Shown here piece after piece: positions 3,308-16,079 of a stretch of 64,000 nt of DNA. The notes under the pieces are model-generated. The model was not told where the DNA came from, did no database searches, and saw only the letters and a program-made list of their open reading frames with translations. Made by a program: the position numbers and the translations under genes. The first letter of the stretch is position 1. The number at the start of each line of letters is the position of its first letter. The stretch is taken from the NCBI RefSeq assembly GCF_000247475.1, contig NZ_AHZC01000222.1:1-64000 (forward strand). Direction: 5' to 3'. This stretch comes from Rhizobium sp. PDO1-076. Lineage in GTDB: Bacteria > Pseudomonadota > Alphaproteobacteria > Rhizobiales > Rhizobiaceae.

Positions 3308-4066
3308 TCAGGAACTGCTTTCCAGCCGGTAGCGGCTGCCGGGATAGAGAAGGCGGACGGATGTGACGATCCGATCGGCCGACCATGTGCGCCGCCGGAT
3401 CAACAGGCAGGGCTCAGAGCGCGCGATCGACAGATGTTTGCATTCCCACGGCTGCGGCAGCACCGCCTCGACGAACTGTTCGGTATGCGAGATCGGCGCG
3501 ATACGGGTGAGGTAGGCATTGGGCGTTGTCGCCCGGAAATCCTGGCCGAGATAGTCAGGCGCGACGGCCGGATTGACGAAACGATCCTCAAGCTGGATCG
3601 GCACCTCGTCCTCGTGATGCAGGATGACCGAGTGAAATGCCGATAGTCCGACCTCTATGTTCATCGCCTCGGCAAGCTCGTGGCCGCAGACTTCGGTCTG
3701 GGCAAGGATGACCTCTGCCGTATGGATCGCGCCGCGCTCGGTGATCTCGTCGGCAATGTTGCGAACACCCATGAAAGGTGCGCTGCGCTTCTTGGTGGCG
3801 ACGAAGGATCCGCGGCCTTGCACCCGTACGATTACGCCTTCGCTCGCCAGTTCCCGCAAGGCACGATTGGCCGTCATCCTGCTGACATTCAGGGTGTCGG
3901 CAATCTCGTTTTCAGACGGAACGCGATGATGGGGTGGCCATTCACCGGTTTCTATCCGCTTCTTGATATCCGCCTTCAGGCGTTCGTAGAGCGGAATGTC
4001 GCGCGCGGTCCCAGGCTGGTCGCCTGATTGGCCCGCAGCCTCGATCGTCCGGTCGCCTTCGGCCAT
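3308..4066 (-). CDS. hutC: Histidine utilization repressor HutC (GntR family)
   Basis: The 252-residue protein has a GntR winged helix (about residues 22-90, with VPSENEIADTLNVSRMTANR) followed by a UTRA effector domain in which HutC proteins bind urocanate. The ATG at 4066 is chosen because a GGGGAGAACC site precedes it; the frame remains open far upstream, but those extra residues are not GntR-like and would run into the divergent hutF. The gene sits head-to-head with hutF at the edge of a complete hut locus, which is strong context for HutC rather than another GntR/UTRA regulator. Confidence 0.93.
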   Translation of the reverse strand: MAEGDRTIEAAGQSGDQPGTARDIPLYERLKADIKKRIETGEWPPHHRVPSENEIADTLNVSRMTANRALRELASEGVIVRVQGRGSFVATKKRSAPFMGVRNIADEITERGAIHTAEVILAQTEVCGHELAEAMNIEVGLSAFHSVILHHEDEVPIQLEDRFVNPAVAPDYLGQDFRATTPNAYLTRIAPISHTEQFVEAVLPQPWECKHLSIARSEPCLLIRRRTWSADRIVTSVRLLYPGSRYRLESSS

Positions 4067-4201: not shown

Positions 4202-5572
4202 ATGACGGCGTCTCGTTCTCTCTTCTGTAAACAGATATTGCTGCCGCAGGGCTGGGTATCTGACGTCGTGTTGAGCATTGGCGACGATGGAAGCGTTGTA
4301 GCGATCGAGGCGGCTTCCGACGCTGCTTCTGATCTGGAGAGCGTCAGTGGTCCGGTTGTTCCGGCCCTGCAAAACCTGCATTCTCACGCATTTCAACGGG
4401 CTATGGCCGGTCTCGCCGAGCTGGCCGGGTCTACTGACGACAGTTTCTGGACCTGGCGCGACGCGATGTATCGGCTCGTCGGGCAAATGTCGCCGGATGA
4501 TGTCGAGATTGTTGCGACTAAGTTGTATAGTGAACTACTGAAAGGTGGTTTCGGCAGGATCGTCGAGTTCCACTATTTCCATCATGCGGCCGGGGGGCGT
4601 CGCTACGCAAACGTGGCCGAGACATCGTTGCGGATCCTGCGTGCGGCTCAAGCATCCGGCATCGGCCTGACCCATCTGCCGGTCTTCTACGCGCATGCTG
4701 GTTTCGGCGGAATGGAGCCGGGAGAGGGGCAGCGACCCTTCATTCATGATGTTGACCAGTTTCTGAGCCTGCTCGATGCGCTGAAGCCTGAATGCGATGC
4801 CGCGGGCGCCACCCTTGGCTTGGCCATTCATTCGCTGCGGGCGGCCACGCCTGATGAAATGCGCGCGGTCCTTTCGGCCGAAAAGACCGGTGGCCCGATC
4901 CATATTCATGTCGCCGAACAGGAACGGGAAGTCGAGGACTGCCTGGCCTGGAGTGGCCGTCGGCCGGTTGAGTACCTGCTGGATGAAATGCCGGTGGACG
5001 AGCGCTGGTGCGCCATTCATGCCACGCATATGACACCGGATGAAACGGCGCGGCTGGCGCGTTCCGGTGCAGTTGCTGGCCTTTGCCCGGCGACTGAGGC
5101 CAATCTCGGCGACGGAATCTTCCCGGCAACCGATTATGTCGGCCATGGCGGAGCGTTCGGTATCGGTACCGACAGCCATGTTGCAACGACGGTTGCCGAA
5201 GAACTGCGCCTGCTCGAATATGGCCAAAGGCTGCGCGACCGCCGCCGCAACCGTCTGGCCAGCGGCCCAGGTGCATCCGTCGGCCGAACCCTGTTCGATG
5301 CTGCCTTGAGCGGTGGCGCACAGGCCGCCGGAATGCGGACCAGCGGCATCCGCGTCGGTGCCCGCGCCGATCTTGTGGTTCTCAACGGCGACAATCCGTT
5401 CATCGGCACGGCATCTGGCGATCAGGCTCTGGATCGCTGGCTGTTTGCCACCGGCAATGACGCCGTGCGCGATGTGATGGTGGGCGGCCGGTGGGTGGTT
5501 CGCGACGGTCGACATCACAACGAGGAAACGATTGATCGCGATTTCCGCGAGGTGCTTCTGCGGCTCGCTTAG
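4202..5572 (+). CDS. hutF: Formimidoylglutamate deiminase HutF
   Basis: This 456-residue amidohydrolase converts N-formimino-L-glutamate to N-formyl-L-glutamate plus ammonia. The metal site is visible: NLHSHAFQ near residue 60, HVAEQ near 236, IHATHMT near 271 and GTDSHVAT near 322. The ATG at 4202 lies just after an AAGGGCACG stretch; upstream in-frame codons fall inside the divergent regulator's promoter and lack family sequence. Its presence with hutG shows that the organism uses the five-step route rather than direct formiminoglutamase. It is the first plus-strand gene of the hut cluster, with hutX 47 bases downstream. Confidence 0.95.
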   Translation: MTASRSLFCKQILLPQGWVSDVVLSIGDDGSVVAIEAASDAASDLESVSGPVVPALQNLHSHAFQRAMAGLAELAGSTDDSFWTWRDAMYRLVGQMSPDDVEIVATKLYSELLKGGFGRIVEFHYFHHAAGGRRYANVAETSLRILRAAQASGIGLTHLPVFYAHAGFGGMEPGEGQRPFIHDVDQFLSLLDALKPECDAAGATLGLAIHSLRAATPDEMRAVLSAEKTGGPIHIHVAEQEREVEDCLAWSGRRPVEYLLDEMPVDERWCAIHATHMTPDETARLARSGAVAGLCPATEANLGDGIFPATDYVGHGGAFGIGTDSHVATTVAEELRLLEYGQRLRDRRRNRLASGPGASVGRTLFDAALSGGAQAAGMRTSGIRVGARADLVVLNGDNPFIGTASGDQALDRWLFATGNDAVRDVMVGGRWVVRDGRHHNEETIDRDFREVLLRLA

Positions 5573-5619: not shown

Positions 5620-6657
5620 ATGCTGAAGACCAAACTGAAATATACACTGCTTGCCACCGCCTTGATGCTTGGCGGTTCCGCCATGAGCGCCAATGCGGCA
5701 TCCTATTGCGCCGACGGCAAGACCGTCACCTTTGCCGGCATCGACTGGGAAAGCGGCGCCCTGATCACGGAAGTGATGAAGACGATCCTGTCGAAAGGTT
5801 ATGATTGCAAGGTGGATTCGATCCCCGGCAATTCGGTGACCCTGGAGCAGGCAACCGCCAACAATGACGTGCAGATCTTTGCCGAGGAATGGATCGGCCG
5901 TTCCGACGTCTGGAACAATGCCGCAGCCGCCGGTCAGGTGACGTCGGTCGGCAAGACCTTCGTCGGCGCAGCCGAAGGCTGGTTCGTGCCCGAATATCTC
6001 GTCAAGGGCGACGAAGCCCGCGGCATCAAGGCCGCAGCTCCGGACCTGAAGAGCGTTTCGCAGCTTTCCGATCCCAAGTTCGTCGAACTGTTCAAGGATC
6101 CGGAAGAGCCGTCCAAGGGCCGCTTCCTCAATTGCCCGTCCGGCTGGACCTGCGAAGGCGTCAACACTGCCAAGCTCGAGGCCTACAAGCTGACGGACAC
6201 CTATGTGAATTTCCGTCCCGGCACAGGCACGGCGTTGGATGCGGCGATCAGCTCGGCCTATCTGCAGGGCGAGCCGGTGCTCTTCTACTACTGGAGCCCG
6301 ACGGCCGTGATGGGCAAGTTTAAGCTGGTCCAGCTCGAAGAGCCGGCCTACGATGAGGCTTGCTGGAAGGAACTCACAAGCGCCACCGGCAAGCGTGAAG
6401 CCGGCTGCGCCTTCCCGGCGGTCGAGGTCGCCTATGGGGTCAACAGCACGTTTGCCAAGGAAGCGCCGGAGATCATCGAAATTCTCGGCAAGGCAACCTT
6501 CCCGCTGGACGATGTCAATGCCAGCCTCGCCTACATGGTCGACCAGAAGGCTGATGCTGTGGCTGCCGCAAACGAGTTCCTGAAGACCAAGGGCGACGTC
6601 TGGGGCGCATGGGTGTCCGCCGATGCCAAGGCCAAGATCGAGGCCTCGCTGAAATAA
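5620..6657 (+). CDS. hutX: Histidine ABC transporter substrate-binding protein HutX
   Basis: The 345-residue periplasmic protein belongs to the OpuAC / glycine-betaine-type binding proteins. A signal peptide spans about residues 1-26, ending SANAA. The mature domain starts with the conserved VTFAGIDWESGALITEV stretch of this family. An AAAAAGGGG site precedes the ATG at 5620. With the downstream permease and ATPase it forms the HutXWV histidine importer described in Sinorhizobium. Histidine as substrate is inferred from its place between hutF and the other hut enzymes. Confidence 0.92.
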   Translation: MLKTKLKYTLLATALMLGGSAMSANAASYCADGKTVTFAGIDWESGALITEVMKTILSKGYDCKVDSIPGNSVTLEQATANNDVQIFAEEWIGRSDVWNNAAAAGQVTSVGKTFVGAAEGWFVPEYLVKGDEARGIKAAAPDLKSVSQLSDPKFVELFKDPEEPSKGRFLNCPSGWTCEGVNTAKLEAYKLTDTYVNFRPGTGTALDAAISSAYLQGEPVLFYYWSPTAVMGKFKLVQLEEPAYDEACWKELTSATGKREAGCAFPAVEVAYGVNSTFAKEAPEIIEILGKATFPLDDVNASLAYMVDQKADAVAAANEFLKTKGDVWGAWVSADAKAKIEASLK

Positions 6658-6761: not shown

Positions 6762-7619
6762 ATGTTTCCCGAAAGCTTGCATATCTCCATCCGCGGACCG
6801 ATCAACGACGCGGTTCAGGCGCTGGTGGTCAATTACGGCTTTGTCTTCAAGGCCATTTCGCAGACCATTCTGCAGGCCATTCTGTTCATCGAATGGATCG
6901 TGCGCGGCCTACCATGGTGGCTGATGATTATCGCCTTCATGGCACTGACATGGCAGGCGACGCGCAAGCCCCTGCTGGTCGCTACCGTCGCGGTCCTGCT
7001 CTTTGCCATTGGTGCGCTCGGCCTCTGGGACCTCGCCATGCAGACGCTGGCGCTGATGCTGATGGCGACGCTGATTTCGGTTGCGATCGGTGTGCCGGTC
7101 GGCATCTGGCTGGCCAAGAGCCGCCTGATGCGCAGCATCACGCTGCCAGTTCTCGATGTCATGCAGACAATGCCAAGCTTCGTCTATCTTATTCCCGCGA
7201 TCATGCTGTTCGGCCTCGGCAAGGTGCCGGCGGTTCTGGCCACGATCGTCTATGCCGTCCCGCCGCTGATCCGCCTGACCGATCTCGGCATTCGCCAGGT
7301 CGACAGCGAGGTTGTCGAGGCGGCAACCGCTTTTGGCGGCAGCCCGCGTCAGATCCTGTTCGGGGTCGAGCTTCCACTGGCCACGCCAACGATCATGGCC
7401 GGCCTCAACCAGACGATCATGATGGCGCTTTCCATGGTCGTGGTCGCCTCGATGATCGGCGCCCGTGGTCTCGGCGAGCAGGTCTTGAACGGCATCCAGA
7501 CGCTCGACGTCGGCAAGGGGCTTGAGGCCGGTCTCGGCATCGTCATCCTTGCCATCGTGCTCGATCGTATCACCCAGGGCTTCGGCCGCTCGAGCCAGGA
7601 GGATGGCCAGAATGGCTGA
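6762..7619 (+). CDS. hutW: Histidine ABC transporter permease HutW
   Basis: The 285-residue integral membrane protein is related to the ProW/OpuAB permeases, with about six hydrophobic segments. The binding-protein-dependent transport EAA loop is recognisable as VVEAATAFGGSPRQILFGVE near residues 185-204. An AAGGA site lies upstream of the ATG. Its last codons overlap the start of hutV by eight bases (ATGGCTGA), implying translational coupling of permease and ATPase. Confidence 0.93.
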   Translation: MFPESLHISIRGPINDAVQALVVNYGFVFKAISQTILQAILFIEWIVRGLPWWLMIIAFMALTWQATRKPLLVATVAVLLFAIGALGLWDLAMQTLALMLMATLISVAIGVPVGIWLAKSRLMRSITLPVLDVMQTMPSFVYLIPAIMLFGLGKVPAVLATIVYAVPPLIRLTDLGIRQVDSEVVEAATAFGGSPRQILFGVELPLATPTIMAGLNQTIMMALSMVVVASMIGARGLGEQVLNGIQTLDVGKGLEAGLGIVILAIVLDRITQGFGRSSQEDGQNG

Positions 7620-8442
7620 GATTGAAATCCGCAACGTCTTCAAGATCTTCGGCCGCAATTCGCAGGAAGCGTTGGTCATGGCGCGCGGCGGAGCCGAGAA
7701 GGGTGAAATTCTCGAGCGCACCGGGTGCAGCGTCGGTCTGAACGACATCAGCCTGAAGATCGGCGCATCGCGGATCTTCGTCATCATGGGCCTGTCCGGA
7801 TCGGGCAAATCCACGCTGGTCCGCCATATCAACCGACTGATAGAGCCGACCAGTGGCCAGATCCTGGTCGATGGCGGGAACGTGCTGGACCTCAATGCAA
7901 AGGACCTGCGCGAATTCCGCACCCGCCGGGTCAGCATGGTATTCCAGAGCTTTGGCCTGATGCCGCATCGGACCGTGATGCAGAACGTTGTCTATGGCCA
8001 GCGGGTGCGCGGGCTGAGCAAGGCCGAGGCCTATCCGATCGGGATGAAATGGATCGAGACGGTCGGACTGCTCGGCTACGAGAACAAGTATCCGCATCAG
8101 CTCTCCGGCGGCATGAAGCAGCGTGTCGGTCTGGCACGTGCGCTGGCGGCCGACACTGATGTGATCCTGATGGACGAGGCCTTTTCGGCGCTCGATCCGC
8201 TGATCCGCAGCGACATGCAGGACCAGTTGCTGCAGCTGGAAAAGAACCTGTCGAAGACGATCGTCTTCATCACCCACGATCTCGATGAGGCGCTGCGTAT
8301 CGGGGCCGAGATCGCAATCCTCAAGGACGGCCGCCTGGTCCAGGTCGGCACGCCGAGCCAGATCCTCAACACGCCGGCGGACGACTATGTCGCCCGCTTT
8401 GTCCAGCGCCGTGCCGGCGCGGAGGCGGCGCATCATGGCTGA
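7612..8442 (+). CDS. hutV: Histidine ABC transporter ATP-binding protein HutV
   Basis: This 276-residue ABC ATPase has Walker A GLSGSGKS near residue 60, signature LSGGMKQR near 163 and Walker B VILMDEAF near 183. It lacks the C-terminal CBS domains found in some ProV relatives, fitting the short HutV form. The ATG at 7612 is inside the end of hutW (eight-base overlap), and its own stop overlaps the next gene by the same eight bases, ATGGCTGA. Confidence 0.93.
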   Translation: MAEIEIRNVFKIFGRNSQEALVMARGGAEKGEILERTGCSVGLNDISLKIGASRIFVIMGLSGSGKSTLVRHINRLIEPTSGQILVDGGNVLDLNAKDLREFRTRRVSMVFQSFGLMPHRTVMQNVVYGQRVRGLSKAEAYPIGMKWIETVGLLGYENKYPHQLSGGMKQRVGLARALAADTDVILMDEAFSALDPLIRSDMQDQLLQLEKNLSKTIVFITHDLDEALRIGAEIAILKDGRLVQVGTPSQILNTPADDYVARFVQRRAGAEAAHHG

Positions 8443-9943
8443 ACGGATCGTTCTTGATGCACCGCTGAGCTGGAAAGAGATTGCGGTGGTTGCTAAAGGC
8501 GCGGAGCTTGCGCTTTCCGAAGCCGCATGGACGCGGATCGCAAAGGCGCGGGCCATCGTCGATGCGCTGGTCGAGCGTGAGATCCGCGGCTATGGCATCA
8601 ATACCGGCGTCGGCGCACTCTGTGACGTGATCATCAGCCGCGCGGATCAGCAGACCCTGTCGCGCAACATCATTCTCAGCCATGCCTGCGGCGTCGGTGA
8701 GCCGCTTGGCAAGGTGGAGACGCGCGCCGTGATGGCAGCGCAGATCGCCAATTTCGCCCACGGCTATTCCGGCGTCAGCAGGCCTGTGGTCGAGACGCTT
8801 CTGGCGCTCCTCAACGGCGATATGCTACCGGTGATCCCATCCAAGGGCTCGGTTGGCTATCTGACGCATGCCGCCGCCATTGGCCTGGTGCTGATCGGTG
8901 AAGGCGAATGCCGCCATGCCGGCGAAACGATTGCCGGGAGCATCGCGCTCAACCGTCTCGGACTTGCGCCCCTGGTCTTGCAGGCCAAGGAGGGCTTGAG
9001 CCTCGTCAATGGCACGCCCTGCGCCACCGGTCTCGGTGCCCTTGCTGTCGCGCGCCTGTCGCATCTCGCAGACTGGGCCGATGCCGCAGCGGCGATGACC
9101 TATGAAAACCTAGGCGCCCAGTCCGATCCTTTTGCCGAAATGCCGCTTGCCCTTCGCCAGTCGCCCGGCCTGCAGCAGGTCGGCCGCAATCTGCGCCACT
9201 GGCTTGCGGGTAGCGCGCTTCTGGCGCAATCGGCCGGTAGCCGCACGCAGGATCCCTTGAGCCTGCGCGCCGTACCGCAGATCCATGGTGCCGTACGCGA
9301 TGCCCTCGTGCATGTCGCAGAGGTCGTCGATCGCGAACTTGCCAGCGTCACCGACAATCCGGTCGTTGCCGGTTCGCCGGAGGCACCGGAAGTGCATTCG
9401 CAGGCCCATGCCGTGGGGGCTGCACTTGGCCTCGCGCTGGACAGCCTCGCCACGGCCGCAGCAGAGCTCGCAGCGATTTCTGAGCGCCGGATCGACCGGC
9501 TGGTCAATCCGTTGGTCAGCGGCCTGCCGGCATTTCTGGCAGCCGGGAGCGGCGTCGCCTCCGGTTTCATGATCATCCAGTATACCGCTGCCGCGCTGGT
9601 TGCGGAGAACCGGCGTCTTGCCGCTCCTGCCAGCCTCGATGGCGGCATTACCTCGGCACTGCAGGAGGATATCCTGACCCATGCGACGCCGGCGGCCGAC
9701 AAGGCGCAGGCGATCCTCGAAAACCTGCAGACGGTCCTTGCCATCGAAGTCATGGCAGCGGGCCAGGCCTACGACCTGCAGTCGGGTTCGGCGGGCAAGG
9801 CGTCTCGGACTGCAGCGCTTTATCAGCGGGTCCGCCAGAACGTGCCCTTCTACCGCGACGACCGGCCGCTCAACGCCGAAGTCGCCAAGGTTCGCACGAT
9901 GATCGGTATCCAGTCGGCACCGATGGACGGAGAAGCACGATGA
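8435..9943 (+). CDS. hutH2: Histidine ammonia-lyase-like protein lacking the MIO tripeptide (HutH2)
   Basis: The 502-residue protein belongs to the HAL/PAL aromatic ammonia-lyase superfamily. It keeps YGINTG near the N-terminus, [12 protein letters not shown] and a QED motif near the C-terminus. The segment that in HutH reads [14 protein letters not shown] reads [10 protein letters not shown] here (near residue 138). The Ala-Ser-Gly that cyclises into the MIO electrophile is therefore missing, along with about seven residues. In the QDP-x-x-x-R motif the usual Tyr is Leu (QDPLSLR). It overlaps hutV by eight bases and hutI by four, so it is translated with the pathway genes. Classical MIO-dependent deamination should not occur; binding, regulatory or alternative lyase roles are open. 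Confidence 0.85.
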
Positions 9944-11160
9944 AAACGCTGCTGCGCAATGCAAGACTGGCAACACTGGCGCCCGACCTGCCGGGCCTCG
10001 GCACCATCGAGGACGGTGCCATCCTGATCGAAGACGGGCGTATTGCCTATGTCGGTCGTGAGGCCGACGCACCGGCAGGCGTCATTATCTCTGAAGTGGA
10101 TTGCGAGGGGCGTTGGATCACGCCTGGCCTGATCGACTGCCACACGCATCTTGTCCATGCCGGCAATCGGGCCCGCGAGTTCGAGATGCGGCTTGCCGGC
10201 GCTTCCTACGAGGAAATCGCCCGCGCCGGTGGCGGCATCGTCTCATCGGTACGACAAGTGCGGGATGCCAGCGAGGCCGATCTGGTTGCCGAGACGCTGC
10301 CGCGCCTCGATGCGCTGATCGCCGAAGGGGTGACAACCGTCGAGGTAAAGTCCGGCTATGGCCTGACGGTCGAGGATGAATTGAAGATGCTGCGGGCGGC
10401 GCGGTCTGTGGGCAACCAACGTCCGGTGAACCTGACGACCACCTATCTCGGCGCCCATGCGACGCCGGTGGACTACAAGGGCCGCAACGGCGACTTCATT
10501 CGTGATGTCGTGCTGCCGGGACTTGCCGCTGCCCATGCCGAAGGACTTGTGGATGCCGTCGACGGCTTTTGCGAGGGGATTGCCTTCTCGCCGGATGAAA
10601 TGCGCGTGGTCTTCGATGCGGCCAAGGCGCTGGGCCTGCCGGTCAAGCTGCATGCCGACCAGTTGTCCAATCTGCATGGGGCAGCGCTTGCCGCAGGTTA
10701 TGGCGCGCTGTCGGCCGACCATCTCGAGTATACCGATGACGAGGGGGCCGCGGCCATGACGGAGGCCGGTACTGTCGCCGTTCTCCTGCCGGGCGCCTAT
10801 TACTTCATTCGCGAAACGAAGAAGCCGCCGGTCGATCTTTTCCGCAAGCATGCGACGAAGATGGCGCTCGCCACCGATTGCAATCCCGGTACCTCGCCGC
10901 TCACTTCGCTGCTTTTGACGATGAACATGGGCGCGACGCTGTTTCACCTGACGGTGGAGGAATGCCTGGCGGGCGTGACACGCGAGGCCGCCCGTGCGCT
11001 CGGACGGCTGGATACGATCGGCACGATCGAGACCGGCAAGCAGGCCGATCTCGCCATCTGGAACATCGAGAGCCCGGCCGAGCTGGTCTATCGCATCGGT
11101 TTCAATCCGCTGCATCGGCGGATCTGGAACGGGGACATTACGGGAGGAAACCACCCATGA
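9940..11160 (+). CDS. hutI: Imidazolonepropionase HutI
   Basis: This 406-residue metal-dependent amidohydrolase opens 4-imidazolone-5-propionate to N-formimino-L-glutamate. Visible motifs are [12 protein letters not shown] near residue 66 (metal ligands), KSGYGLT near 140, KLHADQLS near 240 and ATDCNPGT near 310. Start and stop both overlap neighbours through ATGA (9940-9943 with hutH2; 11157-11160 with hutH), which places it firmly in the hut operon. Confidence 0.97.
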
Positions 11161-12692
11161 CCATTACACTGCATCCCGGCCGCGTTTCGCTCGCAGAACT
11201 TGCAGAGATCTATTGGAACGGCGAGACCGTCGTGCTCGACCGCAGCTTCGACGCGGGCATCGAGCACGCAGCCGCGCGCATCGCCGCCATCGCTGCTGGC
11301 AACGAGGCGGTCTATGGCATCAATACCGGTTTCGGCAAACTCGCCTCGATCCGGATCGATGCGGCCGACACCGCGACACTGCAGCGCAATCTGATCCTGT
11401 CGCATTGCTGCGGCGTCGGCCAGCCGATGCCTGACAACATTGTCCGCCTGATCATGGCGCTCAAGCTCGTATCGCTCGGCCGTGGCGCCTCCGGTGTCCG
11501 GCTCGACCTGGTGCGCCTGATCGAGGGCATGCTGGACAAGGGCGTCACGCCGCTGATCCCGGAAAAGGGCTCAGTCGGGGCGTCGGGCGATCTGGCACCG
11601 CTGGCGCATATGGCCGCCGTGATGATGGGCGAGGCGGAAGCCTTTTATCAGGGTGAACGCCTGCCGGGTGGCGTGGCACTGGAGCGTGCGGGCCTGGAGC
11701 CGGTCGTGCTGGCCGCCAAGGAAGGACTGGCGCTGATCAACGGCACGCAGGCCTCGACGGCGCTGGCTCTGGCCGGCCTGTTCCGCGCCCATCGTGCGGC
11801 CCAGGCGGCCCTGATCACCGGTGCGCTCTCCACCGACGCGGCCATGGGCTCATCCGCGCCGTTCACCGCCGACATCCACACGCTGCGTGGACATAAGGGC
11901 CAGATCGACACGGCAGCCTCGCTGCGCGGCCTGCTGGCCGGGTCTGTCATCCGCGAAAGCCATTTGCAGGGCGACGAGCGTGTGCAGGATCCCTATTGCA
12001 TTCGCTGCCAGCCGCAGGTCGACGGCGCATGCCTCGACTTGCTGCGCATGGCCGGCCGCACGCTTGAGATCGAAGCCAATGCCGTCACCGACAATCCGCT
12101 TGTACTCTCCGACGACAGCGTCGTGTCCGGCGGTAATTTCCACGCCGAACCTGTGGCCTTTGCTGCTGACCAGATCGCCATTGCCGTCTGCGAGATTGGC
12201 GCCATTGCCCAGCGCCGCATCGCGCTTCTGGTTGATCCGGCGCTTTCCTATGGCCTGCCGGCGTTTCTTGCCCGCAAGCCGGGGCTGAATTCCGGCCTGA
12301 TGATCGCGGAAGTCACGTCTGCGGCTCTCATGAGCGAAAACAAACAGATGTCGCATCCGGCCTCGGTGGATTCCACCCCGACATCGGCCAATCAGGAAGA
12401 TCATGTCTCGATGGCCTGCCATGGCGCTCGCCGCCTGTTGCAGATGACGGAAAACCTGTTTTCGATCATCGGCATCGAGGCGCTGACGGCGGCACAGGGT
12501 GTGGATTTCCGCGCACCCTTGACCACCAGCCCCGAGTTGCAGAAGGCAATTTCCACCTTGCGCACCGTTGTCGCTACGCTGGATGAGGATCGCTTCATGG
12601 CGCCGGATCTGGCCGCAGCCAGCGCCCTGGTGGCGAATGGCTCGCTGGTTGCCAGCGTTTCGGATGGCTTGTTGCCGGGATTGGAGGGGTGA
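11157..12692 (+). CDS. hutH: Histidine ammonia-lyase HutH
   Basis: The 511-residue enzyme removes ammonia from L-histidine to give urocanate, the first step of the pathway. The MIO-forming Ala-Ser-Gly lies at residues 142-144 within [47 protein letters not shown] and ANQEDH are all intact. A GGGAGGAA site precedes the ATG, which overlaps the hutI stop by four bases. It is the active counterpart of the MIO-less paralogue upstream in the same operon. Confidence 0.97.
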
Positions 12693-12711: not shown

Positions 12712-12910
12712 ACCCCCCTCTGTCCTGCCGGACATCTCCCCCACACGGGGGGAGATCGACTCGCTGTACATCCCGCTGCTTTCCATAAATCTGGACGCTT
12801 GCGGCAACGATCTTCTCCCTCTCTCAGCTAATTTCAGCGATAGAACTGAGCTGGCGCCCCATCCGATCTCCCTCCTTGTGGGGGAGATGTCCGGCAGGAC
12901 AGAGGGGGGT
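12712..12910. repeat. Long imperfect inverted repeat between hutH and hutG (rhizobial intergenic element type)
   Basis: Two arms of about 47 bases, 12712-12758 and 12864-12910, are inverted copies differing at about three positions. Each contains TCCTGCCGGACATCTCCCCC. Translation across the left arm gives the PPSVLPDISPTRGEI string that recurs in spurious proteins from rhizobial genomes, so this is probably a dispersed palindromic element. It would form a very strong hairpin in the hut transcript. No protein is encoded. Confidence 0.8.
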
Positions 12911-12939: not shown

Positions 12940-13746
12940 ATGACGTTCGAAACCACTCAGGGCACCTCGCCCATCATTCTCGCATTCCCACATACCGGCA
13001 CCGAAGTCCCGTCCGAAATCTGGGCGCGCCTCAACGACAACGGCCGGTTGCTCGCCGATACCGACTGGCATATCCACCAGCTTTATGCAGGCCTCCTGCC
13101 CAATGTGACGACGGTGCGCGCCACCTTCCATCGTTATGTCATCGACGCCAATCGTGACCCGGCAGGAACGAGCCTGTATCCGGGCCAGAACACAACCGGC
13201 TTGGTGCCGGAGACGGATTTCGATGGGGCGCCGATCTGGGCCGAAGGCGAAGAGCCGTCGGAATCCGATATCGCCGATCGGTTGAAGACCTTTCATGCGC
13301 CTTATCACGCAGCCATTCTGGCCGAGATCGAACGGGTGAAGGCGATCCATGGCGTGGCTGTTCTCTACGACTGCCACTCGATCCGCTCGCTGATCCCCTT
13401 CCTGTTTGAAGGCCGCCTGCCGGATTTCAACATCGGCACCGATATGGGCCGCACCTGCGATCCGCGCATCGAGGCCGCCGCAGCCGATGTGGCGCGCGCC
13501 GCCGAAGGTTATACGGCGATCGTCAATGGCCGTTTCAAGGGCGGCTGGACCACCCGTCACTACGGACAGCCACAGAATGGCGTTCACGCCATCCAGATGG
13601 AACTGTCGCAGATTTCGCATCTGACCACCGAAGAGCCGCCCTTTGCCTATGACGACGAGAAGGCCGGGCAGCTGCGCATTCACCTGAACCAGATCCTGGC
13701 ACGCATCGAAGCCGTTGCGGATCAACTGAAGACCAAGGGGAACTGA
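12940..13746 (+). CDS. hutG: N-formylglutamate deformylase HutG
   Basis: The 268-residue protein hydrolyses N-formyl-L-glutamate to glutamate and formate, the last step of the HutF-dependent route. FPHTGTEVP near residue 13, a central YDCHSIRS near 142 and TTRHYGQP near 200 hold the probable metal and substrate residues of this family. The ATG at 12940 lies nine bases after a GGAGG site; the TTG at 12931 is too close to that site. The gene follows the inverted-repeat element and ends one base before hutU begins. Confidence 0.94.
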
Positions 13747-13747
13747 G

Positions 13748-15433
13748 ATGACCAACCCACGCCACAACATCCGCGACGTGCGCTCGCCGCGCGGAACCGA
13801 GCTCAACGCCAAGAGCTGGATGACCGAAGCGCCGCTGCGCATGCTGATGAACAACCTCGATCCTGACGTTGCGGAAAATCCGCATGAACTGGTGGTCTAT
13901 GGCGGCATCGGCCGTGCCGCCCGCACCTGGGAGGATTTCGACCGCATCGTCGCGACGCTGAAGACACTGACCGAGGAGGAAACGTTGATCGTGCAGTCCG
14001 GCAAGCCGGTCGGCGTGTTCCGCACCCACAAGGATGCACCCCGCGTTCTGATCGCCAATTCCAACCTCGTGCCGCATTGGGCGACCTGGGACCATTTCAA
14101 CGAACTGGATAAGAAGGGTCTCGCCATGTACGGCCAGATGACCGCCGGTTCGTGGATCTATATCGGCACCCAGGGCATCGTTCAGGGCACCTACGAAACC
14201 TTCGTCGAGGCCGGTCGCCAGCACTATGGCGGCAACCTCAAGGGCAAATGGATCCTGACCGGTGGCCTCGGAGGCATGGGCGGCGCCCAGCCGCTCGCCG
14301 CCGTCATGGCCGGCGCCTGCTGCCTCGCCGTCGAAAGCGACGAGACCCGCATCGATTTCCGCCTGCGCACCCGTTACGTCGATGAAAAGGCAAAGACGCT
14401 CGACGAAGCGCTGGCGATGATCGACCGGTGGACCAAGGCCGGTGAAGCCAAGTCCGTTGGCCTGCTCGGCAATGCCGCAGAGATCTTCCCGGAACTGGTC
14501 AAGCGCATGCAGGCCGGCGGCCCGCGCCCCGACATCGTGACCGACCAGACCTCTGCCCATGATCCGCTCAACGGCTACCTGCCGATCGGCTGGACGGTTG
14601 CCGAACACAAGGCCAAGCGCGAGAGCGATCCGAAGGCCGTCGAAGTTGCCGCCCGCGCCTCGATGAAGCTGCATGTCGAAGCCATGGTCGCCTTCTGGGA
14701 CGCTGGCGTGCCGACGCTCGACTATGGCAACAATATCCGCCAGGTCGCCAAGGAAGAGGGCCTCGAAAACGCCTTTGCTTTCCCGGGCTTCGTGCCGGCC
14801 TATATCCGCCCGCTGTTTTGCCGTGGCATCGGCCCGTTCCGCTGGGCGGCACTGTCCGGCGATCCGGAGGATATCTACAAGACCGATGCCAAGGTGAAGG
14901 AACTGACACCCGGCAACACGCATCTGCACAACTGGCTGGACATGGCGCGTGAGCGCATTGCCTTCCAGGGACTGCCGGCGCGCATCTGCTGGGTTGGTCT
15001 CGGCGATCGCCATCGCCTGGCGCTGGCCTTCAACGAGATGGTCAAGAATGGTGAGCTGAGCGCACCTGTTGTCATCGGCCGCGACCATCTGGACAGTGGC
15101 TCCGTTGCCTCGCCCAACCGCGAGACCGAAGCGATGAAGGACGGCTCGGACGCCGTCTCCGACTGGCCGCTGTTGAACGCGCTGCTCAATACCGCCTCGG
15201 GCGCCACCTGGGTGTCGCTGCATCACGGCGGCGGTGTCGGCATGGGCTTTTCCCAGCATTCAGGCGTGGTGATCTGCGCTGACGGCTCCGACGATGCCGC
15301 CAAGCGGCTAGAGCGCGTTCTGTGGAACGACCCGGCGACCGGCGTCATGCGCCATGCCGACGCGGGCTACGAGATCGCCCTTGATTGTGCCAAGGAAAAG
15401 GGCCTGCGCCTGCCGGGCATTCTCGGCAACTGA
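13748..15433 (+). CDS. hutU: Urocanate hydratase HutU
   Basis: The 561-residue enzyme converts urocanate to imidazolonepropionate using tightly bound NAD+. The glycine-rich nucleotide site [12 protein letters not shown] lies near residue 175. The urocanase motif around [11 protein letters not shown] and the C-terminal [15 protein letters not shown] are intact. Length matches the family (about 555-560 aa). The start follows the hutG stop after one base, so the two are very likely coupled. Confidence 0.98.
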
Positions 15434-15485: not shown

Positions 15486-16079
15486 ATGCCGTCGTCACCT
15501 GTCCTGCTGAAACCGTCCGACTATCGCCGCATGCCATGGAAAAACGGCCTGGGTGAAACGATCGAGATCGCCGTTTTTCCGCCGGATGCCGGCATCGGCG
15601 ATTTCGACTGGCGGATCAGCATGGCGACCGTTGCAAGCGATGGTCCGTTCTCACTGTTTCCGGGCATCGAGCGCACGCTGTCGGTTCTGTCGGGCGACGG
15701 GCTCACACTGCACCGTGCGGATGGCACCAAGCAGGACTTGACGGTCGACAGCACGCCCTACGCTTTTCCGGCAGACGAACAGGTCAGCGCGACATTGCTC
15801 GATGGCGCGATCACCGATCTCAATGTCATGACCCGGCGCGGCCGGTTCGATCACGGCGTCGAAAGGCTTCTGCTCGACGGCAGCGTGGCGATGCCCGCCA
15901 GAGAAAATACCGTCATTGTTTTCTGTCTGAGGGGGCAGGTCAGACTCGGCGAGGGCGCCGGATCGGCGACGCTTGGCACCGGCGAGAGCCTGCTGTTCGG
16001 CGATGCCATGCCGTCCACCGTTCTCGTCGGGCATGGTGTCTTCTTCATCATCGACCTGATCGCCAGCCGCAGCGCCTGA
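15486..16079 (+). CDS. hutD: HutD family protein
   Basis: The 197-residue protein begins with the family signature PSDYRRMPWKNGLGETIEIA and contains FDWRISMATVASDGPFS, both diagnostic of the cupin-like HutD family. No enzymatic activity is established; in Pseudomonas HutD limits over-induction of hut genes. The ATG at 15486 has an AGAGGGA site upstream. It is the last gene of the hut cluster, after a hairpin. Confidence 0.9.
   Translation: MPSSPVLLKPSDYRRMPWKNGLGETIEIAVFPPDAGIGDFDWRISMATVASDGPFSLFPGIERTLSVLSGDGLTLHRADGTKQDLTVDSTPYAFPADEQVSATLLDGAITDLNVMTRRGRFDHGVERLLLDGSVAMPARENTVIVFCLRGQVRLGEGAGSATLGTGESLLFGDAMPSTVLVGHGVFFIIDLIASRSA

What the first reader, a model, noticed from the sequence alone, without database searches (positions are those of the whole stretch)
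8435..9943. HutH paralogue without the MIO Ala-Ser-Gly, translated within the hut operon
At the place where HutH has [14 protein letters not shown] this protein reads [10 protein letters not shown], so the electrophilic MIO cofactor cannot form; the active-site Tyr of QDPY is Leu too. The rest of the fold, including NGT, TDNP and QED, is kept, and the gene is coupled by overlaps on both sides to hutV and hutI. A conserved lyase-fold protein without its cofactor could be an allosteric partner of HutH (mixed tetramers), a histidine/urocanate sensor coupled to the importer, or a new enzyme acting on a different imidazole compound.
Basis: partly seen in the sequence, partly recalled or inferred. 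Interest (0 to 1): 0.65.

Follow-up and report, generated by a model that had tools for sequence, protein, structure and literature searches.

The report
Cofactor-free HutH relative beside betaine importer
A second, cofactor-less relative of the histidine-degrading enzyme sits in this histidine operon next to a betaine-type importer; it is probably not a dead copy but an enzyme that strips trimethylamine from histidine betaine (hercynine), which would be a new way into a classic degradation pathway.

Summary
The ORF at 8435-9943 (502 aa) reads [10 protein letters not shown] where HutH has [14 protein letters not shown], has Leu for Tyr280, and overlaps hutV and hutI. It is no local deletion: 113 distinct orthologues (own included) all lack Ala-Ser-Gly yet keep HutH's Tyr53, His83, Asn195, Gln277, Arg283 and Glu414; dN/dS is about 0.1. 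That fits a working enzyme. Ergothionase, a MIO-free relative releasing trimethylamine from ergothioneine, shares the Tyr-to-Leu change but lies elsewhere in the tree, so MIO was probably lost twice. The gene keeps company with betaine importers, ProU-type HutXWV or, in two genomes, a BCCT carrier (51 of 80 and 12 of 19 loci; 0 of 20 control hut loci). All 23 sampled genomes with it have urocanase; Tistrella has an XWV-HutH2-HutU operon. Best reading: a MIO-free lyase turning histidine betaine (hercynine) into urocanate plus trimethylamine. The substrate is inferred, not measured, and over a third of the loci lack such importers. It could explain why Pseudomonas fluorescens hutH1, in the same operon position, is dispensable on histidine.

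The parts
8435..9943 (+). MIO-less HutH paralogue (called HutH2 here; proposed hercynine trimethylamine-lyase), 502 aa
8846..8872 (+). codons 138-146 GSVGYLTHA: site where HutH has GSVGASGDL; Tyr142 replaces Ala-Ser-Gly
9257..9259 (+). Leu275 codon (Tyr280 of P. putida HAL)
9581..9583 (+). Tyr383 codon, invariant in this group, Val in HutH, aligned with a Lys of T. denticola ergothionase
5620..6657 (+). HutX, ProX-type (glycine betaine/proline) substrate-binding protein
6762..7619 (+). HutW, ProW-type ABC permease
7612..8442 (+). HutV, ProV-type ABC ATPase
4202..5572 (+). HutF formimidoylglutamate deiminase
3308..4066 (-). HutC-type GntR repressor, divergent (name recalled from the sequence, no family search)
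9940..11160 (+). HutI imidazolonepropionase
11157..12692 (+). HutH canonical histidine ammonia-lyase, with [14 protein letters not shown]
12940..13746 (+). HutG-type N-formylglutamate deformylase (name recalled from the sequence, no family search)
13748..15433 (+). HutU urocanase
15486..16079 (+). HutD-like protein (name recalled, no family search)

Best explanation
HutH2 is an active lyase that works without MIO. HutXWV (a ProU-type importer) brings in histidine betaine (hercynine, N,N,N-trimethylhistidine). HutH2 holds its carboxylate with Arg278 (HAL Arg283) and its imidazole with His83/Glu411 (HAL Glu414); Tyr53 takes the beta-proton and trimethylamine leaves as a neutral tertiary amine, so no electrophilic cofactor is needed. 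Loss of MIO and of the Tyr280 and Phe329 side chains makes room for three methyl groups; the group-specific Tyr142 and Tyr383 may form an aromatic cage. The product, urocanate, enters HutU-HutI-HutF-HutG like urocanate from histidine. Shown here: sequence, conservation, predicted fold, gene neighbourhood, separate place from ergothionase in one tree. Inferred: substrate, leaving group, residue roles, import of hercynine.
For: Conservation: in 114 aligned rows (113 distinct sequences plus the window protein again as reference) the equivalents of Tyr53, His83, Asn195, Gln277, Arg283 and Glu414 are 114/114, as in 83/83 HutH rows, while ASG->Tyr, Tyr280->Leu, Val386->Tyr and Phe329->Ala or Pro are each 114/114. 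dN/dS 0.09-0.12 against three orthologues. Precedent: T. denticola ergothionase (6s7j) has the same fold (TM 0.89), no ASG and the same Tyr280->Leu; PMC13405746 states that ergothionase lacks MIO (passages). The window's genome has an ergothioneine cluster on contig C59 with its own MIO-less HutH-like gene and a thiourocanate hydratase (NF058530, 1042 bits, cut-off 930): the same two-step logic with a sulphur substrate. Transport: a betaine-type importer (ProX-type, OpuAC or BCCT) within 6 kb at 51 of 80 genome-contig loci and 12 of 19 phylum-sample loci, 0 of 20 control HutH loci; two unrelated families, since G137 and G393 have HutU-BCCT-HutH2-HutI-HutG. Module: in three same-genus relatives the same operon lacks just XWV-HutH2, the matches to HutF and HutI lying 64-83 bases apart. 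Product: HutXWV-HutH2-HutU-HutD in Tistrella with that genome's only HutU; 23 of 23 HutH2 genomes have urocanase against 152 of 396 sampled. Published: P. fluorescens hutXWV-hutH1, hutH1 not needed on histidine (PMC8871633, passages), and five Pseudomonas-like genomes show that layout with a MIO-less gene.
Against: No substrate was measured and no ligand modelled. 14 of the 99 loci have a polar-amino-acid (SBP_bac_3) ABC importer instead and 22 have none of the types searched; only 2 of 17 same-genus HutH2 genomes, own included, have a HutX orthologue, and four genomes without HutH2 have HutX-like proteins at 40-48%. L034, a close relative, has HutH2 without XWV. G063 and G393 have a hut cluster but no canonical HutH, which could mean the protein handles histidine there. 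S. meliloti hutH2 mutants are recalled to grow about 30% less on histidine as nitrogen source (Boncompagni 2000, recalled, not held). The fate of trimethylamine in this genome was not examined.
Confidence: 0.6

Rival explanations
1. A MIO-free lyase with another imidazole or betaine substrate (for example ergothioneine or an S-substituted form, a partly methylated histidine, imidazole lactate), whose product may or may not be urocanate.
For: The substrate is inferred from neighbours only. Other MIO-less HutH-like groups exist, two of the genes lying next to OpuAC betaine transporters.
Against: The window genome has a separate ergothioneine cluster with its own MIO-less lyase and a dedicated thiourocanate hydratase, whereas HutH2 is paired with ordinary HutU.
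Confidence: 0.2
2. A slow, MIO-independent histidine ammonia-lyase: a back-up or replacement for HutH.
For: Two genomes have it in a hut cluster without a canonical HutH found (G063; G393). Reduced growth of an S. meliloti hutH2 mutant on histidine (recalled).
Against: A full-length canonical HutH was seen in 41 of 45 genomes with the gene (25 of 28, two more showing fragments only; 16 of 17), so it is not usually a replacement. Removing MIO by mutation practically abolished activity in Rubrobacter PAL (PMC3903478, passages). P. [quoted passage not shown]
Confidence: 0.08
3. A catalytically dead regulatory subunit or sensor: mixed tetramers with HutH, or a histidine/urocanate sensor coupled to the importer.
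For: No cofactor; HutH fold predicted; gene overlaps the importer ATPase gene.
Against: All six HutH active-site residues examined are invariant, which a dead subunit would not need; present without canonical HutH in G063 and G393; canonical HutH within 6 kb at only 22 of 80 loci. The changes among the HAL site residues compared (ASG, Tyr280, Phe329) are those taken to lie by the substrate amine (recalled).
Confidence: 0.1

Closest known systems
Ergothionase (ergothioneine trimethylamine-lyase; T. denticola 6s7j, Burkholderia HME13)
   Same: HAL fold, no ASG/MIO, Tyr280->Leu, Tyr53/His83/Arg283/Glu414 kept; in the window genome's C59 cluster the ergothionase-like gene sits with a urocanase homologue.
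   Different: 27% identity in the Foldseek alignment; separate part of the tree; shorter deletion (GEGD for GASGD, against Y for ASGD); Asn195 kept in HutH2 but aligned with Ser in ergothionase; a Lys of ergothionase aligns with Tyr383; HutH2 is paired with ordinary HutU.
Histidine ammonia-lyase HutH (P. putida HAL, 1b8f/1gkj)
   Same: Nearest fold (TM 0.91) and nearest curated models; the six residues compared are identical.
   Different: No ASG so no MIO; Tyr280, Phe329 and Val386 replaced; below the curated cut-off of TIGR01225 (464.5 against 539.15 bits) and NF006871 (477.1 against 524).
hutXWV-hutH2 of S. meliloti (recalled) and hutXWV-hutH1 of P. fluorescens, published as histidases
   Same: Same operon layout; S. 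meliloti 4H41 orthologue 73-74% identical (L080); five Pseudomonas-like genomes with the published layout carry a MIO-less gene, 48-51% identical.
   Different: No alternative reaction for them was found in the searches made here.

Membership tests
Histidine ammonia-lyase (HutH) | Ala-Ser-Gly tripeptide that cyclises to MIO | tested here: not met
   0 of 113 distinct orthologues
Histidine ammonia-lyase (HutH) | score above the curated cut-off of TIGR01225/NF006871 | tested here: not met
   464.5 < 539.15 and 477.1 < 524
Histidine ammonia-lyase (HutH) | ammonia release from histidine | not testable with these tools
   needs assay
Aromatic amino acid lyase fold (PF00221) | Pfam match over cut-off and fold | tested here: met
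   499.6 bits against 27.3; AF2 pLDDT 87, TM 0.91 to HAL
Ergothionase | HAL fold without MIO | tested here: met
Ergothionase | common descent with characterised ergothionase | tested here: not met
   HutH2 groups with MIO lyases (100/99), not with 6s7j or the C59 clade. Single tree, long branches flagged
Ergothionase | active-site Lys (about residue 384, role recalled from Maurer 2019) | tested here: not met
   Tyr383 at the aligned position in 114 of 114 rows
Ergothionase | trimethylamine release from ergothioneine | not testable with these tools
   needs assay
S. meliloti HutH2 / P. fluorescens HutH1 group | gene directly after hutXWV and close sequence relationship | tested here: met
   S. 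meliloti strain 4H41 seen, P. fluorescens SBW25 itself not seen

The most novel reading that the evidence does not exclude
The HAL fold discarded MIO a second time, independently of ergothionase, to become a hercynine (histidine betaine) trimethylamine-lyase. With HutXWV or a BCCT carrier it forms a catabolic module that lets soil, plant-associated and marine Pseudomonadota feed histidine betaine into the hut pathway, and genes long annotated as spare histidases (S. meliloti hutH2, Pseudomonas hutH1) belong to it.
Probability: 0.5. Interest if true: 0.75.

Novelty: new variant of a known kind. Interest (0 to 1): 0.62.

Why it matters
If true it adds a new entry reaction to a textbook catabolic pathway, explains 'redundant histidase' genes in model bacteria, shows repeated loss of a protein-derived cofactor when the leaving group improves, and adds a trimethylamine source in soil and rhizosphere. 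It also means that annotation as histidine ammonia-lyase is wrong for a broad group: 23 of 398 sampled Pseudomonadota genomes, own included, carry the gene.

Tried and rejected
Sequencing error or recent local deletion: rejected, all 113 orthologue sequences share the loop. Pseudogene: rejected, intact frame and dN/dS 0.09-0.12. Membership in ergothionase by descent: not supported. Plain duplicate of HutH: rejected, 38% identity to the operon's canonical HutH and fixed active-site differences.

HutX co-occurrence in the genus gave a mixed result: orthologue (97-100%) in 2 of 17 HutH2 genomes and 0 of the 43 others; weaker HutX-like proteins (40-48%) occur in four genomes without HutH2 (G037, G050, G052, G056). 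Hercynine biosynthesis in the own genome: no EgtD match, but that model reached its cut-off in none of the 14 control genomes, so the result says little. The papers by Maurer 2019 and Boncompagni 2000 are not held, nor is PMC9691600; what I say of the first two is recalled, or for Maurer also from passages of PMC13405746. Passages of PMC7653990, PMC9002059 and PMC12977541 added nothing on a MIO-less hut lyase. Longest-ORF gene calling was unreliable in GC-rich DNA and was replaced by codon-usage calling, itself a simple method. No coordinates of the model were available, so distances in the site were not measured.

Context was taken for 19 of the 22 non-own phylum-sample genomes (G130, G338, G359 not fetched). 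The 20 control loci were taken from the HutH genes listed in genomes without HutH2; not all such genes were used. At L101 the HutX gene lies beyond the 6 kb limit and the locus is counted as having none.

Full report
What is there. The ORF 8435-9943 encodes 502 residues without interruption. It starts inside the end of hutV (8 nt overlap) and its stop overlaps the start of hutI. The operon reads hutC(-), hutF, hutX, hutW, hutV, this gene, hutI, hutH, hutG, hutU, hutD (names of hutC, hutG and hutD recalled from their sequences). The own genome holds three PF00221 genes: this one, the canonical HutH at 11157-12692, and one on contig C59. NCBIfam scores the protein below the cut-offs for histidine ammonia-lyase, while the neighbouring HutH passes.

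The missing cofactor is a fixed property of a family. Seventeen of 60 related genomes, own included, have an orthologue at 56-100% identity. A genome scan matched 575 stretches, 521 of them encoding a relative, and kept the best 80, at 61-88% identity, from Rhizobiaceae (including S. meliloti and Agrobacterium), Tistrella, Thalassospira, Labrys, Kaistia, Acidisoma, Pseudogemmobacter and Burkholderiaceae. In a sample of 398 Pseudomonadota genomes 23 (own included) carry it, down to 48% identity, and the 22 others all have a GS[VA]GY loop. I aligned 113 distinct orthologues and the window protein as reference with 82 canonical HutH proteins plus P. putida HAL: the tripeptide is replaced by a single Tyr in every HutH2 row, Tyr280 is Leu in every row, Phe329 is Ala or Pro in every row, and Val386 is Tyr in every row; Tyr53, His83, Asn195, Gln277, Arg283 and Glu414 are unchanged in every row of both families. 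(HAL numbering is that of the 1gkj chain; the roles of these residues in HAL are recalled.) dN/dS against three orthologues is 0.09-0.12. This is the pattern of an enzyme whose substrate grip is kept and whose electrophile pocket has been rebuilt.

Relation to ergothionase. A MIO-free HAL-fold lyase is already known: ergothionase, which eliminates trimethylamine from ergothioneine and lacks MIO (PMC13405746, passages read). The T. denticola enzyme (6s7j) reads SSIGEGDITTLSH and QDPLSFR at the two sites, so it shares the Tyr-to-Leu change. The predicted structure of HutH2 (mean pLDDT 87.3, pTM 0.89) matches HAL at TM 0.91 and ergothionase at TM 0.89. In a 52-row maximum-likelihood tree HutH2 (21 rows, 100/100), with one Acidisoma relative (97/93), falls in a 40-row group with the MIO lyases (100/99), apart from 6s7j, the C59 clade and other MIO-less groups. 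Strict nesting inside the MIO lyases rests on a fork of 86/84; the root is a drawing convention and several long branches are flagged. The deletion also differs in length. I read this as a second, independent loss of MIO.

A parallel in the same genome. On contig C59 the third PF00221 gene (GSIGCADIG, QDPLSLR; nearest PDB entry ergothionase) lies with a thiourocanate hydratase (NF058530, 1042 against 930 bits), a hydantoin-5-propionate amidohydrolase ErtD (767 against 600), an N-carbamyl-glutamate amidohydrolase ErtE (594 against 520) and an S-Me-THD protein: an ergothioneine-utilisation cluster. So this genome already has one MIO-free lyase gene beside a urocanase homologue; HutH2 beside ordinary HutU looks like the sulphur-free counterpart, that is histidine betaine to urocanate.

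Gene neighbourhood. HutX resembles betaine-binding ProX (closest solved structures by sequence 7yle and 1r9l) and HutW/HutV are ProW/ProV-type. Within 6 kb of HutH2 a betaine-type importer was found at 51 of 80 genome-contig loci and 12 of 19 phylum-sample loci; a polar amino-acid type (SBP_bac_3) at 8 and 6; none of the searched types at 21 and 1; around canonical HutH in genomes without HutH2, 0 of 20. More telling is convergence: in G137 and G393 a BCCT carrier (PF02028, E below 1e-115), a family recalled to carry quaternary ammonium compounds, sits between HutU and HutH2. In three same-genus relatives the operon is collinear but lacks just hutXWV-hutH2, the matches to HutF and HutI being 64-83 bases apart (L251, L252, L255), so importer and lyase can come and go as one module, although L034 keeps HutH2 without XWV. 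Against a simple picture, only 2 of 17 same-genus HutH2 genomes have a HutX orthologue.

Link to urocanase. In Tistrella the operon is hutXWV-hutH2-hutU-hutD and holds that genome's only HutU, while its HutH is elsewhere. Rhizobium sp. NFR07 has a HutU directly after HutH2 and another with its HutH. In 28 of 28 genomes tested by handle there is a urocanase over the cut-off, and all 23 HutH2 genomes of the phylum sample have one against 152 of 396 in the sample as drawn for that search (Fisher p 9e-11 with the other 373 as comparison group, ignoring relatedness). Pseudogemmobacter (G063) has HutH2 with HutF, I, G, U and no canonical HutH in the held assembly. G393 has none either: its other two PF00221 genes are a GDLTPLSY-type protein 35% identical to HAL and a second MIO-less protein with loop GSLGAADL. 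A full-length canonical HutH was seen in 25 of 28 (G080 and G082 show only fragments besides other types) and 16 of 17 genomes with HutH2, so the two proteins are normally not interchangeable.

Published genetics. PMC8871633 (passages read) reports that in P. [quoted passage not shown] Five sampled genomes (G216, G323, G371, G395, G429), whose HutH is 83-88% identical to P. putida HAL and which I therefore take as Pseudomonas, have HutU, a cytosine-permease-like gene, HutXWV, a MIO-less gene, HutH, HutI, HutG in that order. SBW25 itself was not available, so its identity with this group is inferred from the layout. From recall, the S. meliloti hutXWV-hutH2 operon imports histidine, proline and betaines and a hutH2 mutant grew about 30% less on histidine; that paper is not held. 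The S. meliloti 4H41 orthologue is in the family (L080).

Mechanism proposed. Trimethylamine is a far better leaving group than ammonia, so MIO, which activates histidine for ammonia loss, is dispensable. Loss of MIO bulk, of the Tyr280 hydroxyphenyl and of the Phe329 ring makes room where the amino group lies; Tyr142 and Tyr383, invariant and group-specific, are candidates for a cation-pi cage. All of this paragraph is inference from sequence and general chemistry.

Novelty. Searches of the open library for hercynine with urocanate and lyase (none), hercynine lyase, hercynase, hercynine degradation, utilization or catabolism (none of these phrases; only 'hercynine as a' matched), histidine betaine with hercynine, bacteria and degradation (10 of 68 papers listed), hercynine with catabolism or trimethylamine lyase (15 of 74 listed) and MIO-free terms (12 of 33 listed) showed no report of such an enzyme in what was listed; only titles and abstract starts were seen. 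Subscription papers on ergothioneine catabolism were not readable. I therefore call it a new variant of a known kind: a MIO-free HAL homologue predicted to be a trimethylamine-lyase, with independent origin and a predicted new substrate.

Noticed in passing
own genome contig C59 (L160:5617-14043): Ergothioneine-utilisation cluster with thiourocanate hydratase, ErtD, ErtE, an S-Me-THD protein and a MIO-less HutH-like gene (presumptive ergothionase) that passes no NCBIfam cut-off.
   Followed up: partly
L146:7425-16255 (Rhizobium sp. NFR07) and L226:1405-8051 (G393): A second MIO-less HutH-like gene (loops GSIGAGDL and GSLGAADL) beside an OpuAC-type betaine ABC importer and an ornithine-cyclodeaminase-like protein, with luciferase-like monooxygenases in L146: perhaps a lyase for yet another betaine.
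   Followed up: partly
L147, L148, L151, L152, L157: Further MIO-less HutH-like genes with loops GSIGAADL, GSIGAGDL, GSVGEADI and GTLGEGDL; Tyr280 is Leu in 4 of these 5. L147 is in one cluster with a divergent urocanase.
   Followed up: partly
L149:1212-10113 (Acidisoma): A sister of HutH2 with loop GSVGYLIATAH, near a divergent urocanase, CoA-transferase, MmgE/PrpD and acyl-CoA dehydrogenase genes.
   Followed up: no
window 12712-12910: Inverted repeat with 47-nt arms, 96% complementary, 105 nt apart, in the hutH-hutG gap; similar pieces lie near the same gap of some relatives. Possibly a rhizobial intergenic mosaic element (recalled).
   Followed up: no
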